38,254 nt of DNA from an uncultured Eubacteriales bacterium (GTDB lineage Bacteria; Bacillota; Clostridia; Lachnospirales; Lachnospiraceae), in contig ONED01000014.1 of the NCBI GenBank assembly GCA_900316755.1, positions 17,520-55,773 of the forward strand, given 5' to 3'. Both the position numbers and the translations under genes were made by a program. Below are positions 18,501 to 38,254 of the stretch, piece after piece. The first letter of the stretch is position 1. Every line of letters begins with the position of its first letter. Under the pieces are notes generated by a model. The model was given only the letters and a program-made list of their open reading frames with translations, made no database searches and had not been told where the DNA came from.

Positions 18501-18647
18501 TTGGCAATGTTCGGACGGCAGATTTCGGTTCAGAGCTATTTGATTGGAGCTGCGTTTACGATAGGTTTTTCTATGCTGGTAAATCTGTTCATGTATTTTA
18601 AACTGAAAAAAATTGATATGGTGGAATCACTAAAGAGTGTAGAGTAA
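15561..18647 (+). CDS. FtsX-like ABC permease with long extracytoplasmic coiled coil
   Basis: Large permease of the MacB/FtsX superfamily, partner of the preceding ATPase. One helix at about residues 19-38 is followed by an external domain. A Lys/Glu/Ala-rich coiled coil runs from about residue 250 to 470 with regular heptads and few prolines. A first membrane triplet with an FtsX-like core (IGTLKALGYSKG) follows at about 490-620. A second half begins near 675 (FLMTLLGIGGCMGLLMVGFG) and repeats the FtsX core (LATLKVLGFYD) near the C terminus. AGGTGGGAAG precedes the ATG at 15561; another ATG at 15546 overlaps the ATPase stop and has a poorer site. The role may be cell-envelope mechanotransmission, lipid or peptide handling; the substrate is unknown. 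Confidence 0.9.
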   Translation: MKKNARKKEFFMEIRKSMGRFLSIFLIVALGVSIFVGIHATEPDMILSGDAYVDESKLMDIKVVSTYGLTEEDVEVIEALPSIEKALGSYSTDVLCGVGDSLKVLHVMAHTEDMNLITVTEGRLPKAEGECLLDEDFLKASGYEIGDVITMESGTDAVLTDMLKNTDYQIVGSGNSPLYFSLDRGNSTIGNGSVSGFAIVSPKEFVLDVYTEVYAVAEGAAETTSFTEEYEELIDEALKEIQLVQNGRCEVRRNDLAKEAQLQVDAARNELNTKKEDAEKEISENEKKLEEAELEIKLRKLQVENGKTQVESAKTELETNRAELRETREAYDTVIGKLNAERKGLETKLSEAEQKSENLGEEAQKVIQETMQSLRASIEEISRKIDSVTGEFGDKIAAGEKQIAEAQVLLAEKEAELLAAEKELAAAEKEIASGKSELSEAKTEMDSEIQDGETQIESAEAEISALELPTWYVFDRTSIPEYSGYESNADRIAALAIVFPGIFFLVAALISLTTMTRMVEEQRVQIGTLKALGYSKGIIMKKYVGYALLATLGGSVFGVLVGEKLFPYIIIMAYKILYQHIPHVLLPYQWGYALLATAIAVCCTVGATLFSCYKVLGDQPAVLMRPEAPKIGKRTLIERIPFLWRHLNFTWKSTLRNLFRYKKRFLMTLLGIGGCMGLLMVGFGLRDSISSIVDYQYGELQLYDSSVYLGDNMEDSVREELATYLADNPDISASMSVHMSNITIRQEKNKEDVYLVVIDDVKQAEGFFVYRNRVSKEKYELSDDGMILTEKAAKTLGVKAGDTVWISSDGRKEQQVTVTAVCENYMSHYAYMTLELYESLYEDTPVSNCLFLQKKEGVSEKEMEQVGENILAYEGVLNVQYTLNLSEKLHDMLFTMDQVIVVLVIVAGMLSFVVLYNLNNINITERRRELATLKVLGFYDIEVAAYVYRENILLTLLGTLLGCGIGKFLHAFTIETVEVDLAMFGRQISVQSYLIGAAFTIGFSMLVNLFMYFKLKKIDMVESLKSVE

Positions 18648-18760
18648 CTCCGGAGACATTGCCCGGAAGAGCCGGGATATTGTTTGAAAACCCCGGAGGC
18701 ATTGCCCGGAAGAGCCGGGATATTGTTTGAAAACCCCAGAGGCATTATCTGGAAAATGGG
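18648..18760. repeat. 43-bp tandem repeat, about 2.6 copies
   Basis: Two copies (18648-18690 and 18691-18733) differ at only two positions; a degenerate third starts at 18734. Each holds the small hairpin CCCGG-AAGAG-CCGGG. The array begins at the first base after the FtsX-like gene's stop and ends before the fructokinase leader. It has no clear T-tract. Confidence 0.85.
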
Positions 18761-18826: not shown

Positions 18827-19777
18827 ATGAATAAGTTATTATCCATTGGAGAAGCATTAATTGACATGATTCCGGAGCAGGTTAATGTGGGCATTTCGGA
18901 AGTGAAACAATTTCAGCCGATTGTGGGCGGCGCACCTGCAAATGTATGTGGAGCCTTCGTAAAGCTTGGCGGCGCAGCCGAGATGATTACACAGCTTGGG
19001 GACGACCCATTTGGCGATAAGATTGTTGCGGAATTTGAACGCTTCGGAATCGGAAAACAGTATGTGAAGAGAACGGACAAAGCAAATACGGCACTGGCAT
19101 TTGTGGCATTAAAGGAGGATGGAAACCGGGAATTTTCTTTTTATCGCAGACCGAGTGCAGATATGTTGCTTTGCGCGGAAGATATCAAGGAAGAATGGTT
19201 TGAAAAAGAGTATGCACTGCATTTTTGCTCTGTATCGCTGGGAGACTTCCCGATGAAGGAGGCACACAGGCAGGCAATTACATATGCCCAAAAAGCAGGA
19301 TTACTCATTAGTTTTGACCCGAATCTGCGCAAACCGCTCTGGAGCAGCGAGGAGACTTTGTACCGCACGGTGCATGAGTTTATTCCAAGCGCACATATCT
19401 TGAAGATTTCAGATGAAGAACTGGAATTTCTTACTGGCAAGACCGAGATTACCGATGTGCTGGAAAAGCTGTTTGTAGGAAACGTAGAGATGGTCATTTA
19501 TACAAAGGGATCTGACGGAGCAGAATGTTATACGAAAAAAGCGAAGGCATTTGCACCATGTGAAAAAGTGAAAGCGGTAGATACTACGGGAGCCGGAGAC
19601 GGGTTTATCGGTTCTTTCCTGTATCAATTGTATGCCGGGGGAATTACTGCTGAGAATATTGCAGAAGTATCAGCAGAGCAGATGGAGCGGTTTTTGACAT
19701 TTTCCAATCGTTTCTGCGGATATAGTGTGCAGAGAAAGGGAGCGATTGCCTCCTATCCTGTGAAAGAGGAAATCTAA
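18827..19777 (+). CDS. Fructokinase, PfkB family
   Basis: Phosphorylates fructose to fructose-6-phosphate in the cytoplasm. The 316-residue protein shows the N-terminal SIGEALIDMIPE, the GGAPANVCGAFVKLGG substrate-site segment typical of ScrK/Frk and the ATP-site motif DTTGAGDGF with catalytic D258. GAGAGGAGATTCAA precedes the ATG. It would use fructose released by the GH32 and amylosucrase-like enzymes, although it lies 4.6 kb beyond them and is separated by a GNAT gene and an ABC pair. A possible TATGAT -10 lies at 18784-18789. A strong terminator follows, then a hairpin array. Confidence 0.92.
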   Translation: MNKLLSIGEALIDMIPEQVNVGISEVKQFQPIVGGAPANVCGAFVKLGGAAEMITQLGDDPFGDKIVAEFERFGIGKQYVKRTDKANTALAFVALKEDGNREFSFYRRPSADMLLCAEDIKEEWFEKEYALHFCSVSLGDFPMKEAHRQAITYAQKAGLLISFDPNLRKPLWSSEETLYRTVHEFIPSAHILKISDEELEFLTGKTEITDVLEKLFVGNVEMVIYTKGSDGAECYTKKAKAFAPCEKVKAVDTTGAGDGFIGSFLYQLYAGGITAENIAEVSAEQMERFLTFSNRFCGYSVQRKGAIASYPVKEEI

Positions 19778-19790
19778 AGATGGATTGTTG

Positions 19791-19817
19791 GCCAACCACA
19801 ATGTGGTTGGCTTTTTT
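19791..19817 (+). terminator. Rho-independent terminator of fructokinase
   Basis: Near-perfect stem GCCAACCACA/TGTGGTTGGC followed by C and six T, starting 14 bp after the stop codon. It lies at the position one period upstream of the first unit of the palindrome array, and the sequence behind it resembles the array spacers. Confidence 0.9.
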
Positions 19818-19836: not shown

Positions 19837-20134
19837 TTGCCCAGGGGTTGGGCAAGAAGGGGATGGTTTGTGCTTGTTTTGCCCAGGGGTTGGGTAAAGA
19901 AGAGGTGGTTTGTGCTTGTTTTGCCCAGGGGTTGGGCAAAAGGTGGTGGTTTGTGCTTGTTTTGCCCAGAGGCTGGGCAAGAAGGGGACGGTTTGTGCTT
20001 GTTTTGCCCAGGAGTTGGGCAAAGAAGAGGTGATTTGTGCTTGTTTTGCCCAGAGGTTGGGCAAGGAAGTGGTGGGCTGCGGTGGTTATGCCCAACGCCT
20101 GGGCAAAACCATGGGATTCTCATACCGTTGCCCA
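19837..20134. repeat. Array 1 of TTGCCCA-N5-TGGGCAA palindromes
   Basis: Seven 19-nt palindromes start at 19837, 19879, 19921, 19962, 20004, 20046 and 20088 (period 42, 42, 41, 42, 42, 42). A half-site TTGCCCA follows at 20128. Units 1-6 have the loop pattern R-R-G/A-G-Y-like (GGGGT, GAGGC, GGAGT, GAGGT). Unit 7 has loop ACGCC, which is the opposite orientation. Spacers of 22-23 bp are also related within the array (…GGTTTGTGCTTGTT). The array lies between the convergent fructokinase and PD-(D/E)XK-like genes. Because the period is mostly divisible by three, it opens false reading frames on both strands. Confidence 0.95.
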
Positions 20135-20167: not shown

Positions 20168-20950
20168 TTATTTATCAAGAAAATAGTAGTTTACAATTTT
20201 TTCAACCATATCAGCAGTCAGAGGCTTTTCTTTCGTCTCATAAGTTGTAATTAAGTTTATGGATGGAATAAAACCATGAGATGCATAAAGTTGAAGCTTA
20301 GAGCATGTGTTTTTTACATAAGCAGGGTCATCCATAAAACCGAAATGTTCCCAGTAATAGAATTCACCGCTTTCCGGGTGACGAATTGTAAAATCCGGAA
20401 AAAGAGCAATCTCATCTAATTGTAAAAGGGATTCGTAACGAAACGGAATTTTGTTTTTATACAGGAACATATCAATCAGAACTTCTGATTTAGATCTCAC
20501 ATATTTGCCGGAGAGTGTTTTGTGAATTAAAGTTTCAGGGTGTTTTTGGTTTGTTTCATATGTGGAGTTCATCCAGTTGGTGAATTCCTGAGAAACAGGG
20601 GTAAAATACGATGAAATAAGATTCATATACTCAGGGGAGTTGACAAAAGAAAGTTCATCTTGCGTAGTATTGTGATGATGTTTTAGGTAAGAACTAAGAG
20701 CCTCTTGTTCGTTCAGTAAAGCTTGAAGCTGAAACGATAGATATTTCTTATGGGCTAATTTTTCAGCAAGCTGGCGTTTCTGCTTTGGAATGTAATCGTA
20801 TGTAGAGCCATCGCTCCGATACCATTTGCTGTATTTCCCATTTTTAGTGCAGACCAATTTCCCTTCGGGAAATGTTTTTAGCTGTTGTTTCAAAGTCTGG
20901 ATTTGTTTTTCGTTTTTTTGATACTCATTGAGTATCTTTTCATGAATCAT
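20168..20950 (-). CDS. Uncharacterised protein with PD-(D/E)XK nuclease-like domain
   Basis: A 260-residue protein of unknown role. The N-terminal 90 residues are Lys/Gln/Glu-rich and likely coiled coil, with a GKYSKWYRSDGSTYDYIP insert at 38-55. The C-terminal part looks like a PD-(D/E)XK nuclease fold: E156 in RSKSEVLID, D186 in FPDFTIRHP and E201 in YYWEHFGF, with K213 in Y-V-K-N. The classical lysine after the last glutamate is replaced (E-H-F), so activity is uncertain. TACAAGGAGGTATACTACATG is consistent with the start at 20950. The gene is divergent from htpG and convergent with fructokinase. The domain call rests on my motif reading only. Confidence 0.75.
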   Translation of the reverse strand: MIHEKILNEYQKNEKQIQTLKQQLKTFPEGKLVCTKNGKYSKWYRSDGSTYDYIPKQKRQLAEKLAHKKYLSFQLQALLNEQEALSSYLKHHHNTTQDELSFVNSPEYMNLISSYFTPVSQEFTNWMNSTYETNQKHPETLIHKTLSGKYVRSKSEVLIDMFLYKNKIPFRYESLLQLDEIALFPDFTIRHPESGEFYYWEHFGFMDDPAYVKNTCSKLQLYASHGFIPSINLITTYETKEKPLTADMVEKIVNYYFLDK

Positions 20951-21085
20951 GTAGTATACCTCCTTGTATCAGTCGTTTGAAGATTGTGGTAATTCTTATT
21001 GAATCACATAACAAGCAGATTGTAAAGAATGAAAATCTCTAAAATGAAAGATTTCTAAATCAAAAATAAACAAAATATAAAATTA

Positions 21086-21112
21086 TTAGCACTCAATTAA
21101 AATGAGTGCTAA
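21086..21112. promoter_or_regulatory. CIRCE operator (HrcA binding site)
   Basis: TTAGCACTC-N9-GAGTGCTAA, a perfect match to the CIRCE consensus. It lies 6 bp upstream of the htpG -35 box, so HrcA control of htpG is expected. Confidence 0.95.
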
Positions 21113-21118
21113 TTTTTG

Positions 21119-35221: not shown

Positions 35222-36079
35222 ATGAATTGGAAAAAAGCAAAAGAGATGGTATTTGATATAGGAGCGGATATGGCAGGCGGTCTTTTGATTGCAATCGGGG
35301 TGTATAATTTTGCCGTGGCGTCAGGGTTTCCGGTCGCCGGGATTTCCGGAATTGCGGTAGTTTTTTACCACTTTTTTGGGATTCCCATTGGGGCTATGAC
35401 AAACCTATTGAATATTCCGATTGCGATTTTCTGTTACCGTTCTCTGGGGAAACAATTTTTCCTGAAGTCCATAAAAACCATGTTGATTTCCAATATTATG
35501 CTGGACGCTGTGGCTCCGCTGTTTCCGGTTTATGAGGGAGATTTGATGCTGTCCTGCATTTGTATGGGCGTCTTTTCGGGAATCGGATTTGCCATGATTT
35601 ATGCGCGGGATACTTCCACCGGAGGCGCGGATTTTATTTTTATGGCTGTGCGAAAATGGAAGCCCCACATCTCTCTTGGAAAGCTGATTATTGTGTTTGA
35701 CTTTGCAGTGGTTATCGTCGGAGGCATTCTCATGCAGGGAGATATCAACCGTATTATCTATGGCTTGATTGCGACTTACATTTTGTCGGTGGTAGTAGAC
35801 AAGGTGATGTACGGAATCGATGCCGGGAAACTGGCATTGATTGTGACGGCGCACGGACAGGAAGTTGCGGACAAGATTGATGAACTGACCCAGAGGGGTT
35901 CGACGCTGTTAAAAGGAGTCGGGAGCTATACAAAAGAAGAAAAACAGGTGGTGATGTGTGCCTGCAACAATAAACAGATGCATATGGTACAGAAGGCAGT
36001 AAAAGAAGTAGACGAAGAAGCCTTTCTGGTGACGATGGAGTCCAGCGAAGTGCGGGGGAAAGGATTTAAGCCGCATTGA
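35222..36079 (+). CDS. YitT family membrane protein
   Basis: Integral membrane protein of unknown function, 285 residues. About five or six helices in the YitT domain (GGLLIAIGVYNFAVASGFPV, then the DTSTGGADFIFMAVRK motif typical of the family) are followed by a C-terminal cytosolic DUF2179 domain (about 215-280, ALIVTAHGQEVADKIDELTQRG, then AFLVTMESSEVRGKGFKPH). It is translationally close to nudC. The last 22 bp of this gene and its stop region are copied, with one mismatch, 428 bp downstream. Confidence 0.94.
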   Translation: MNWKKAKEMVFDIGADMAGGLLIAIGVYNFAVASGFPVAGISGIAVVFYHFFGIPIGAMTNLLNIPIAIFCYRSLGKQFFLKSIKTMLISNIMLDAVAPLFPVYEGDLMLSCICMGVFSGIGFAMIYARDTSTGGADFIFMAVRKWKPHISLGKLIIVFDFAVVIVGGILMQGDINRIIYGLIATYILSVVVDKVMYGIDAGKLALIVTAHGQEVADKIDELTQRGSTLLKGVGSYTKEEKQVVMCACNNKQMHMVQKAVKEVDEEAFLVTMESSEVRGKGFKPH

Positions 36080-36080
36080 G
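36059..36080 (+). repeat. 22-bp direct repeat, copy 1 (yitT 3' end)
   Basis: This segment encodes the last residues (GKGFKPH and stop) of the YitT protein. It matches 36487-36508 in 21 of 22 positions. Confidence 0.9.
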
Positions 36081-36142: not shown

Positions 36143-36398
36143 GGAGACTGGTGTTGGGCAAGGGAGCGGGGGATGCTTTGTTTTTTGCCCGAGGGCTGGG
36201 CAAGGGAGCGGGGATGCTTTGTTTTTTGCCCAAGGGTTGGGCATGGATACGCAAATTTGACTTGCGTTTGCCCAACCTGTGGGTAAGAGTGTGAGGATTT
36301 CTTTACTTTTGCCCAATCTGTGGGCAAGAGTGCGAAGATTTCTTTACTTTTGCCCAACCTGTGGGCAAGGAAGCAGGGATTTGCTCTGCTTTTGACCA
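36143..36398. repeat. Array 2 of TTGCCCA-N5-TGGGCAA palindromes
   Basis: Full units start at 36185, 36226, 36268, 36309 and 36350 (period 41-42), with degenerate half-units at 36143 and 36392. The first two full units have loops AGGGC and AGGGT; the last three have ACCTG, ATCTG and ACCTG, so orientation flips at the middle. The spacer at the flip (36245-36267) contains its own inverted repeat ACGCAA-N7-TTGCGT. Spacers differ from array 1 although the palindromes agree. The stretch 36080-36520 holds no gene; a small hairpin GGAAACT-N6-AGTTTCC lies at 36438-36457. Confidence 0.93.
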
Positions 36399-36486
36399 AG
36401 AAGTAAATCCAACCTATGGATGGAAATGCCTGTGAATGGAAACTCTCCAAAGTTTCCGTTAAAAGGCAGGGAGCTTCTGGTAAAAT

Positions 36487-36508
36487 AAAGGATTTAAGCC
36501 ACATTGAG
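36487..36508 (+). repeat. 22-bp direct repeat, copy 2
   Basis: Second copy of the yitT 3' end segment, with a single G-to-A change, placed just before a consensus promoter. Together with copy 1 it brackets array 2. Confidence 0.9.
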
Positions 36509-36520
36509 GCGAGATACCAA

Positions 36521-36550
36521 TTGACAAGATATGATATAATTCTGTATAAT
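36521..36550 (+). promoter_or_regulatory. Consensus sigma-A promoter pointing into the IS element
   Basis: Perfect TTGACA (36521-36526) and perfect TATAAT (36545-36550), 18-bp spacer; a further TATAAT lies at 36535-36540. No plus-strand gene follows; the transposase is antisense. Confidence 0.75.
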
Positions 36551-36583
36551 ACCTGACTTTGGGAGTTGAACCTTAAAATATGG

Positions 36584-36624
36584 TGCTAAGCCAAGGGTTA
36601 GAACCTGTGGCTTAGCATTTTTTT
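36584..36624 (+). terminator. Terminator at the IS edge
   Basis: Stem TGCTAAGCCA/TGGCTTAGCA (36584-36593, 36608-36617) followed by seven T. It stops plus-strand transcription entering the element; the transposase stop codon lies in the loop. Confidence 0.85.
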
Positions 36625-38254
36625 AATTTCACCATCGCTCAAAAAATAGTTGATAAACGAGTTCTTTTTGGCGAGATTTATGTATTTTCTGTCGGATATT
36701 TTGGCTACTCTGAAATCATGTATGAAGTTAAATATATCTTCGGTACAATAGGTGTTTTTTAGTACCTTGAACTGTAAAAGTCTTGTCAACAATACTGCCA
36801 GATAACAGATTAGAAAATGTCCGGTGATGGTATCCTCTTTTTGCAGAAATACCGGTCTTGCATCAAGCTGTGATTTCATGATTTTAAAAGATTCTTCAAT
36901 TCTCCACAGGTTATGATAGGCATCATAGATATCTTTGCTTGACATGGAAATCTCTGATGTGACCAGCATGTTATAGCCTGCAAGTTCCAGGGATTTCTTT
37001 ATCAGTTCCTCATTCATGGTAACTTTTACTTTACCGTCTGTGTCGTTCCCTTTCTTATCCACTGCAGAAAAAATCACATATTTGGCACAGTCTCCATACT
37101 CTGATTTCTTTGCTTGTGATGCTTTTAGAAGCTTAGCCTTTTCGATTTCTCTGTTGATTTCGTAAATCTGCTTTTTGGCAAGCTTTGGGTTATAGGTGAC
37201 AATTCTTTTTTCTCTTAGTTTAAAAGTTCTGTATTGTCCGGTAGTTACATCTTTGATCCGGTATTCGAAATCGTCAACACAATCTTTTATCCGATATAGG
37301 ACATCACCATTTGCATTTTTCACGTCTTTATAATCATTTGAAAGTAGCACCCATGTTTTTTCTGTTTCCGGAAGCTGTTTTACGGATTTAGAGAAGATAT
37401 ATCCATCCCCATTTTTAACAGCGTGATAAATATTTTCGGAGCAGTTCAAACCTTTGTCCGCGATCTGAATGGTTCTTCCCGTTACAGAGTTGCGCTTTTT
37501 TAATGTATCAATGATATTTCTAATTACTGGCTTTTCACTTTCGTTGCCCGGGAAAAGCTTCATACCTATGGGAATCTGGTTTGCATCAAGAAGAAGACCG
37601 AGACCGACAATCGGTTCCTTTTTGTTTTCTTTGGAAGGTCCCTTTTTTCGGAAATCGTCTTCTTTATCTATTTCAAAATAGAAGTTTGTACAATCGAAAT
37701 AACTGTGTGAAGTATCAAACTTATAGAGTTGTTTCATCTGATGATTGTAGATTTCAATAATCTTTTCGTACTCACAGCCTATATATTCAAGACCGTCATA
37801 AAGCTGGTTGAGAGAATAACCACAGGAATCAAACAGTTTTGGAATCACTTCATCAAATGTTTTGGATTTTGAGCATGGTTGAACAAGCCTTGCGTAAACA
37901 AGGGAAGACATCATGTCAAAAACATTAAAACGGAAATCCGTAGCAGTCTGCATCAGGTCGATATACTTCTTGACAGAGAGTTTGTCATTGATATTTTTCA
38001 TCGGGAAATAACCGAGAAGCTTCTCGGGAGATTCCTCAGAAATCTGTTGAGCCTTTTTTGCTTTTTGGGCAGCTCGAAACTCCTGGTTGAGCTTAACCAC
38101 TTCTTCCTGATAGAAGGAGACAGGGTCGTCAATCCCTTTCGCCTGAAGTTCGTGTACATAACCAATAGGTTTAAAAGATTTGTGAGCAGTATGACCACGC
38201 TCCGGATCATAAAAGCTCTCATAAATTTGAAGATATAAGCCTTTTTTGTTTTTT
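36598..38254 (-). CDS. IS1634-like DDE transposase, start beyond window
   Basis: Transposase of the IS4 superfamily, most like IS1634. The catalytic aspartates are in SYFDCTNFYFEI and IADKGLN. The catalytic glutamate lies in LWRIEESFKIMKSQL, matching the Y-R-E-K region. The frame stays open past the internal ATG at 38100 to the window edge, reading GLYLQIYESFYDPERGHTAH, which is typical near the start of such transposases. About 552 residues are visible and the start codon is missing. No frameshift is seen, so it may be active. The gene ends inside the edge terminator. The element's left end is probably near 36551-36575; the other end is outside. Confidence 0.93.
   Translation of the reverse strand, partial: KNKKGLYLQIYESFYDPERGHTAHKSFKPIGYVHELQAKGIDDPVSFYQEEVVKLNQEFRAAQKAKKAQQISEESPEKLLGYFPMKNINDKLSVKKYIDLMQTATDFRFNVFDMMSSLVYARLVQPCSKSKTFDEVIPKLFDSCGYSLNQLYDGLEYIGCEYEKIIEIYNHQMKQLYKFDTSHSYFDCTNFYFEIDKEDDFRKKGPSKENKKEPIVGLGLLLDANQIPIGMKLFPGNESEKPVIRNIIDTLKKRNSVTGRTIQIADKGLNCSENIYHAVKNGDGYIFSKSVKQLPETEKTWVLLSNDYKDVKNANGDVLYRIKDCVDDFEYRIKDVTTGQYRTFKLREKRIVTYNPKLAKKQIYEINREIEKAKLLKASQAKKSEYGDCAKYVIFSAVDKKGNDTDGKVKVTMNEELIKKSLELAGYNMLVTSEISMSSKDIYDAYHNLWRIEESFKIMKSQLDARPVFLQKEDTITGHFLICYLAVLLTRLLQFKVLKNTYCTEDIFNFIHDFRVAKISDRKYINLAKKNSFINYFLSDGEIKKMLSHRF

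What the first reader, a model, noticed from the sequence alone, without database searches (positions are those of the whole stretch)
19837..20134. Seven-unit palindrome array with a 42-bp period
TTGCCCA-N5-TGGGCAA recurs seven times with starts 41-42 bp apart, plus a half-site. The unit is near four helical turns, so all palindromes face the same side of the DNA. Six units share one orientation and the seventh is flipped. It is not coding and not CRISPR-like, because the spacers are related. The array could be a protein-binding platform, a gyrase/BIME-like element or a 3'-end RNA structure.
Basis: partly seen in the sequence, partly recalled or inferred. Interest (0 to 1): 0.82.

Follow-up and report, generated by a model that had tools for sequence, protein, structure and literature searches.

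The report
Helically phased inverted-heptamer arrays between genes
The stretch is a row of paired seven-letter DNA signs set at whole turns of the double helix, one of several such rows in this bacterium and in some relatives (some of which use a different sign), and it is most likely a docking platform for an unknown DNA-binding protein.

Summary
The array is real, but the palindrome is probably not its functional unit. Read so, A1 has 7 units plus one orphan half-site. The genome holds at least two more, degenerate, arrays. A genus-mate (G300) carries 42 copies of a different heptamer, TACGGTG-N22..24-CACCGTA, control 0. In three species of the genus, 61 unit-to-unit steps fall at about 62, 73, 83, 94, 114 and 125 bp, that is 6-12 helical turns; the window's 41-42 bp is 4 turns. 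A Clostridia MAG of another family (G308) has a dispersed about 170-bp element with the window's heptamer and a 22-bp core. Heptamers are kept; cores diverge and show no self-pairing beyond composition. Best reading: phased binding-site arrays for an unidentified DNA-binding protein, REP/NIME/sopC-like in layout but outside those families as tested. The protein and its role are not shown.

The parts
19837..20134 (.). Array A1: orphan half-site TTGCCCA 19837-19843 followed by seven inverted-heptamer units
19849..19885 (.). A1 unit 1, TGGGCAA-N23-TTGCCCA (then units at 19891-19927, 19933-19968, 19974-20010, 20016-20052, 20058-20094, 20100-20134)
36155..36398 (.). Array A2, six units (36155-36191, 36197-36232, 36238-36274, 36280-36315, 36321-36356, 36362-36398), steps 42, 41, 42, 41, 41; no orphan half-site; cores differ from A1
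19790..19812 (+). Intrinsic-terminator-like hairpin after the pfkB-type gene (T-tract follows), just upstream of A1
18827..19777 (+). PfkB-family sugar kinase, left neighbour of A1
20168..20950 (-). PD-(D/E)XK-like protein of a multi-copy family in the genus, right neighbour of A1, convergent with pfkB
35222..36079 (+). YitT-family membrane protein, left neighbour of A2
36598..38100 (-). IS1634-family transposase, right neighbour of A2, convergent with yitT

Best explanation
A1 and A2 are intergenic arrays of bipartite binding sites for a sequence-specific, probably dimeric, DNA-binding protein. Each site is two inverted heptamers (TGGGCAA/TTGCCCA) with centres about 30 bp (roughly three turns) apart, around a core whose sequence does not matter. 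Neighbouring sites are set a whole number of turns apart (here four), so proteins bound along the array face the same side and can contact each other. Other species of the genus use the same plan with another heptamer (TACGGTG). Shown: the heptamers, the near-fixed core length, the step quantisation, the intergenic placement and the lack of core conservation between arrays. Inferred: protein binding, cooperativity, and a REP-like role between genes (local DNA organisation, insulation or a transcription road-block). The protein is unknown.
For: Scans for inverted 7-mer pairs (spacings 3-60, no motif given) put TTGCCCA-5 first in a 330-kb own-genome sample, with TGGGCAA-22 and -23 among its top seven, and TACGGTG-23 first in a 116-kb sample of genus-mate G300 (6 seen, 0.002 expected). 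Whole genomes: 42 copies in G300, 8 in G301, 4 in G303, reversed control 0. Of 85 units, the core is 23 in 72, 24 in 11 and 22 in 2. The 61 steps have best period 10.5 bp with R 0.92; six step classes equal 6, 7, 8, 9, 11 and 12 turns, null fraction 5e-5. Window half-sites: 6 substitutions in 182 positions, whereas A1 and A2 cores share 45% against a 34% shuffled baseline. Of 38 changed heptamer pairs in 32 imperfect TACGGTG units, 0 are changed on both sides, and cores show no in-register pairing beyond composition (z 0.80, 0.03, 1.06). The 24 examined TACGGTG loci lie between ORFs, two of them overlapping an ORF call slightly.
Against: No binding protein was identified. Steps within one array are not independent, because arrays grow by tandem duplication, and the six step classes were grouped by me. 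G308's long linker gives 92-93 bp (8.8-9.0 turns) and L439 in the own genome has steps of 50 and 51 bp (4.8-4.9 turns), only approximately whole. L439 holds one unit changed on both sides (TGGGTAA...TTACCCA), as a hairpin would allow. A1 and A2 fold well as RNA (z -6.7 and -7.6), though inverted heptamers alone would do that. Whether the window's arrays and the TACGGTG arrays are one class rests on shared geometry, not sequence. In the own-genome scan one unrelated pair (TTTTTGA-16) also reached 3. Samples of 8 other genus-mates gave no pair above 2, though two of them, G301 and G303, do carry arrays, so these samples are too small to show absence. Within the 125-bp duplication of A1, half-sites have 1 of 42 changes against 23 of 83 outside (Fisher 5e-4), but 17 of the 23 lie in one core that may be out of register; without it 1 of 42 against 6 of 61 is not significant (p 0.24).
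Confidence: 0.6

Rival explanations
1. A non-autonomous mobile repeat: the heptamers are recognition sites of a transposase or recombinase (as dRS3 is an integration target in Neisseria), spread between genes and then expanded in tandem; helical phase is that of the synaptic complex.
For: G308 carries at least 10 copies of an oriented about 170-bp six-half-site element whose ends are inverted and an excess of TGGGCAAT (187 against 28 for the control). Distribution is patchy and species-specific. A2 sits beside an IS1634-family gene.
Against: No target duplication was seen by eye in the ten aligned G308 copies. Y1 transposase domains were not found in G000, G303 or G308, and are present in 8 of 11 genomes without regard to arrays. 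Neighbours of TACGGTG arrays look like housekeeping proteins (by eye). Copies share half-sites and spacing but mostly not cores, as maintained sites would. Of 20 further G308 stretches picked for TGGGCAAT, only 3 held the element and 1 a part at a contig end, so the element does not explain all of the TGGGCAAT excess.
Confidence: 0.25
2. A 3'-UTR RNA structure (tandem hairpins) that stabilises or terminates transcripts of the flanking genes.
For: 17 of the 22 non-divergent TACGGTG loci have a stop codon within 57 bp, and only 2 of 24 lie between divergent genes; A1 and A2 fold better than shuffles.
Against: No two-sided changes in 38 changed pairs; no inner pairing; the exact heptamer is kept where any stem would do; the only terminator called on the + strand near A1 is the separate one at 19790-19812, and none was called inside the array on either strand; helical step quantisation has no meaning for RNA.
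Confidence: 0.1
3. A chance minisatellite: a 42-bp tandem duplication that happens to contain a palindrome, with no function.
For: A Tannerella MAG has a 42-bp array of the same palindrome, in none of the other 122 searched genomes of its family; tandem repeats of other sequence are common in genus-mates.
Against: A1, A2 and two further arrays of the genome share heptamers and spacing, while A1 and A2 cores are near the chance level of likeness; the same geometry recurs with another heptamer at 17 loci of one genus-mate.
Confidence: 0.05

Closest known systems
REP / BIME / REPIN elements (GTAG- and CGTC-tagged families)
   Same: Short inverted repeats, intergenic, mostly between tandem or convergent genes and close to 3' ends, grouped, often species-specific (PMC3733652: abstract and the section on genome distribution read).
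   Different: Core not conserved, no GTAG/CGTC foot seen, no Y1/RAYT domain found in G000 or G308, and steps are quantised by the helical turn.
dRS3 repeats of neisserial intergenic mosaic elements (NIME)
   Same: Conserved terminal inverted repeats around an unconserved core, ATTCCC(N8)GGGAAT, gathered in intergenic arrays (PMC3898611, passages read).
   Different: Half-sites are 21-24 bp apart instead of 8; spacing follows helical turns; no phage integrase link shown.
F plasmid sopC centromere (twelve 43-bp repeats, each with a 16-bp inverted repeat bound by ParB/SopB)
   Same: Tandem period of about four turns with an inverted repeat per unit (PMC9178275, passages read).
   Different: Several chromosomal arrays; no ParA/ParB family among the 17 window proteins scanned; genus-mates use 6- to 12-turn steps.

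Membership tests
REP/BIME (RAYT-mobilised) | RAYT-type (Y1, PF01797) gene in the genome | tested here: not met
   0 matches in G000 (96.7% complete), G303 and G308; 8 of 11 genomes have one, among them G300 (fragment with a stop) and G301; 5 of 14 control genomes ring, E. coli included
REP/BIME (RAYT-mobilised) | GTAG or CGTC unpaired foot at one end | tested here: not met
   Half-site profiles show no GTAG/CGTC beside TACGGTG (106 half-sites), TGGGCA in G308 (54) or in the window (23)
REP/BIME (RAYT-mobilised) | Extragenic location, mainly tandem or convergent gene pairs | tested here: met
   16 tandem, 6 convergent, 2 divergent of 24 TACGGTG loci as scripted (17, 5, 2 if the ORF that overlaps the end of L321a counts as its neighbour); A1 and A2 both convergent
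dRS3 / NIME | ATTCCC(N8)GGGAAT repeat | tested here: not met
   Heptamers TGGGCAA or TACGGTG, core 21-24 bp
Partition centromere (sopC/parS type) | Adjacent parA/parB-type genes | tested here: not met
   17 proteins of the window, from 12351 to 38100, scanned with Pfam; none ParA/ParB-like. Genes left of 12351 and the rest of the genome were not scanned
CRISPR array | Identical repeats with unrelated spacers, and cas genes | tested here: not met
   A1 cores are related to each other; no Cas family among the 17 window proteins scanned
Rfam RNA family | Match at gathering score | tested here: not met
   Only a tRNA in the window
Gyrase-binding BIME-2 | Gyrase binding in vitro or in vivo | not testable with these tools
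   needs ChIP or cleavage mapping

The most novel reading that the evidence does not exclude
A previously undescribed chromosome-organising or insulating system of Clostridia: a fast-evolving DNA-binding protein and dispersed intergenic arrays of its bipartite sites, with fixed three-turn half-site geometry and whole-turn steps, whose recognised heptamer has switched (TGGGCAA to TACGGTG or the reverse) within one genus.
Probability: 0.35. Interest if true: 0.8.

Novelty: new variant of a known kind. Interest (0 to 1): 0.62.

Why it matters
Bacterial intergenic repeats are usually explained as REP-like transposition by-products or RNA hairpins. Here the half-sites, the core length and the helical phase are kept while the rest drifts, which points to a protein-DNA assembly. 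Species of one genus use different heptamers on the same scaffold, so comparing their DNA-binding proteins could identify the factor and show how a site and its protein change together.

Tried and rejected
Palindrome as the unit: rejected on array ends, the TACGGTG arrays and L439. Tannerella L047 as a relative: it begins and ends as palindromes without an outer partner, and is alone among 123 genomes searched in its family, so probably convergence. L039 (G309) has TGGGCAA-N23-TTGCCCA with an inner hairpin at two places; not followed up. RAYT: not found in G000 or G308. RNA hairpin. IS1634 ends as the source of the heptamer: no inverted 10-mers shared between the flanks compared. Link to the PD-(D/E)XK gene beside A1: multi-copy in the genus, but no like array beside its copies in a TRF run and by eye. 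Of the 22 genome-contig loci, 3 (L046, L047, L039) looked intergenic or array-like by eye; the rest look like single coincidences in coding sequence and were not checked one by one. Class and family: TGGGCAA-N20..24-TTGCCCA matched 28 of 391 genomes of the class, with more than 2 matches only in G000 (7) and G609 (16), the latter being G308 by its coordinates; TACGGTG-N22..24 gave single hits in 10 of 329 family genomes, about as many as the reversed control. Ten family genomes sampled at 40 kb each gave no array; the highest count was 3, AAAAGGG-6 in G038. Control half-sites also gave clusters of three or more sites, but not the regular alternation. Genus stretches were chosen partly around earlier hits, not at random.

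Full report
OBSERVATION. The array at 19837-20134 is present as described: seven TTGCCCA-N5-TGGGCAA palindromes at steps 42, 42, 41, 42, 42, 42, plus a half-site. Tandem Repeats Finder also sees a 125-bp three-unit higher-order repeat, so the array grew by tandem duplication. It is probably non-coding: five ORFs crossing it have no Pfam match above cut-off and the 41-bp steps break frame. It lies between the convergent 3' ends of a PfkB-family kinase gene, followed by a terminator-like hairpin at 19790-19812, and a PD-(D/E)XK-like gene. A second array, A2, lies 16 kb away between yitT and an IS1634-family gene, also convergent.

WHAT THE UNIT IS. In A2 the first element is TGGGCAA at 36155 and the last is TTGACCA at 36392-36398: read as TGGGCAA-N22/23-TTGCCCA, A2 is six whole units, whereas read as palindromes it has a stray half-site at each end. 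A1 is likewise seven units, with one stray half-site at its left end. Two further arrays of the same genome, found from weaker palindrome hits, have gaps of 23-25 bp between hexamers: L220:11364-11450, degenerate, linker 5, and L439:180-328, linkers 5 and 14-15. In L439 the variant half-site TTACCCA is matched by TGGGTAA 23 bp upstream, not by TGGGCAG 5 bp downstream. Searches for the palindrome with up to one or two mismatches had suggested only the two window arrays; weak hits led to the others.

RELATIVES. A scan of the genome-contig collection for palindrome plus half-site gave 22 loci. One, L046, belongs to a Clostridia MAG (RGIG9099; G308, the same genome as G609 by its coordinates, same class but another family than the window's). 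There the heptamer is part of a dispersed element: ten copies aligned share six half-sites in the order >24< 56-57 >24< 5 >24< (hexamer gaps) or its reverse complement, seven of them with all six half-sites recognised by the script and three with a variant site. The ten come from 30 G308 stretches read, all picked for half-sites or palindromes. Another locus, in a Tannerella MAG, is a 42-bp palindrome array, but with palindrome ends, and none of the other 122 genomes searched in its family has it; I treat it as convergence.

A SECOND HEPTAMER IN THE SAME GENUS. A motif-free count of inverted 7-mer pairs (spacing 3-60) put TTGCCCA-5 first in the own-genome sample, with TGGGCAA-22 and -23 among the top seven; one unrelated pair, TTTTTGA-16, also reached 3 (329,606 bases). 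In 116,002 bases of genus-mate G300 the top pair was TACGGTG-N23-CACCGTA, 6 times against 0.002 expected. Whole-genome searches then gave 42 copies in G300, 8 in G301, 4 in G303, 1 each in G302 and G305 (core of 20, the same sequence in both), 0 in the other 7 of 12 genomes, and 0 for the reversed control in all 12. I read the regions of 53 of the 54 G300/G301/G303 copies: with up to two changes per unit they hold 85 units (53 perfect) at 24 loci, 17 of them in G300; the core is 23 in 72, 24 in 11, 22 in 2.

HELICAL PHASE. The 61 unit-to-unit steps are 61-64 (23), 71-74 (29), 82-84 (5), 94 (2), 114 and 125; two gaps of 948 and 1339 bp between separate arrays of one stretch were left out, and the 114 and 125 steps may span a lost unit. 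The best period between 8 and 14 bp is 10.5 (R 0.92). Treating the six step classes as the data, so that tandem copies do not count twice, random sets reach the observed phase coherence in 5e-5 of trials. The window's 41-42 bp is four turns; G308's 92-93 and L439's 50-51 are near, not exactly, nine and five turns.

DNA OR RNA. Among 38 changed heptamer pairs, 19 are plain mismatches, 11 A-C, 8 G-U, and 0 are changed on both sides; the limit of two changes per unit makes this a modest test, and L439 has one two-sided unit. Cores show no pairing in register beyond what swapping halves between units gives. Whole-array RNA folds are strong, as inverted heptamers alone would make them. The sequence of the heptamer is kept where a stem would only need complementarity. 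I therefore favour recognition of double-stranded DNA.

PLACE. The 24 TACGGTG loci lie between ORFs; L400 overlaps an ORF call by 18 bp and the end of L321a overlaps one by 56 bp, at a TTG start with a later ATG in frame. As scripted 16 are tandem, 6 convergent, 2 divergent (17, 5, 2 with the overlapping ORF as L321a's neighbour), and 17 of the 22 non-divergent loci have a stop codon within 57 bp. Neighbours look like housekeeping proteins by the start of their sequences (by eye; not run through a family library). REPs show a like preference (PMC3733652). No Y1/RAYT domain was found in G000 or G308, while 8 of 11 genomes searched have one, and no GTAG or CGTC foot is seen in the half-site profiles.

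LIMITS. Only part of each genome was read. The protein is unknown, so function is inference. I found nothing in print describing this layout in searches (keyword searches of open-licence papers; listings only, apart from passages of PMC2267715, and the papers named above), which is not proof of absence.

Noticed in passing
window 21085-21113: ATTAGCACTC-N9-GAGTGCTAAT inverted repeat ahead of the Hsp90/HtpG gene, a CIRCE-type HrcA operator (name recalled; sequence).
   Followed up: no
window 36458-36551 and L204:146-239 (same contig, just beyond the window): The IS1634-family gene is flanked by 94-bp direct repeats with one mismatch; long target duplications are recalled as typical of IS1634.
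   Followed up: partly
window 36059-36080 and 36487-36508: The 3' end of yitT (AAAGGATTTAAGCCRCATTGAG) recurs downstream of A2, as if the A2 segment had been inserted or duplicated.
   Followed up: no
window 18646-18746: A 43-bp direct repeat (2.3 copies, 94% match) with its own CCCGG-aagag-CCGGG hairpin, between the FtsX-like gene and pfkB; a different motif from A1.
   Followed up: partly
window 20168-20950: PD-(D/E)XK-like protein matching PADLOC candidate-defence models PDC-S68 and PDC-S69, with several copies and fragments in genus-mates.
   Followed up: partly
L297 2260-2481 and 2676-2875: Downstream of a relative of that gene in G303: 31-bp and 20/41-bp tandem arrays of unrelated sequence.
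   Followed up: no
L047 4376-4604: Tannerella MAG array of the same palindrome at exactly 42 bp; its sixth unit is changed on both arms at one pair.
   Followed up: partly
L302, downstream of the gene copy: MITE-like element with inverted ends TATTCTCAATATGCA...TGCATATTGAGAATA in G302, seen by eye.
   Followed up: no
G308 genome: TGGGCAAT is in excess (187 against 28 for the control), yet 16 of 20 stretches picked for it held no element; the rest of the excess is unexplained.
   Followed up: partly
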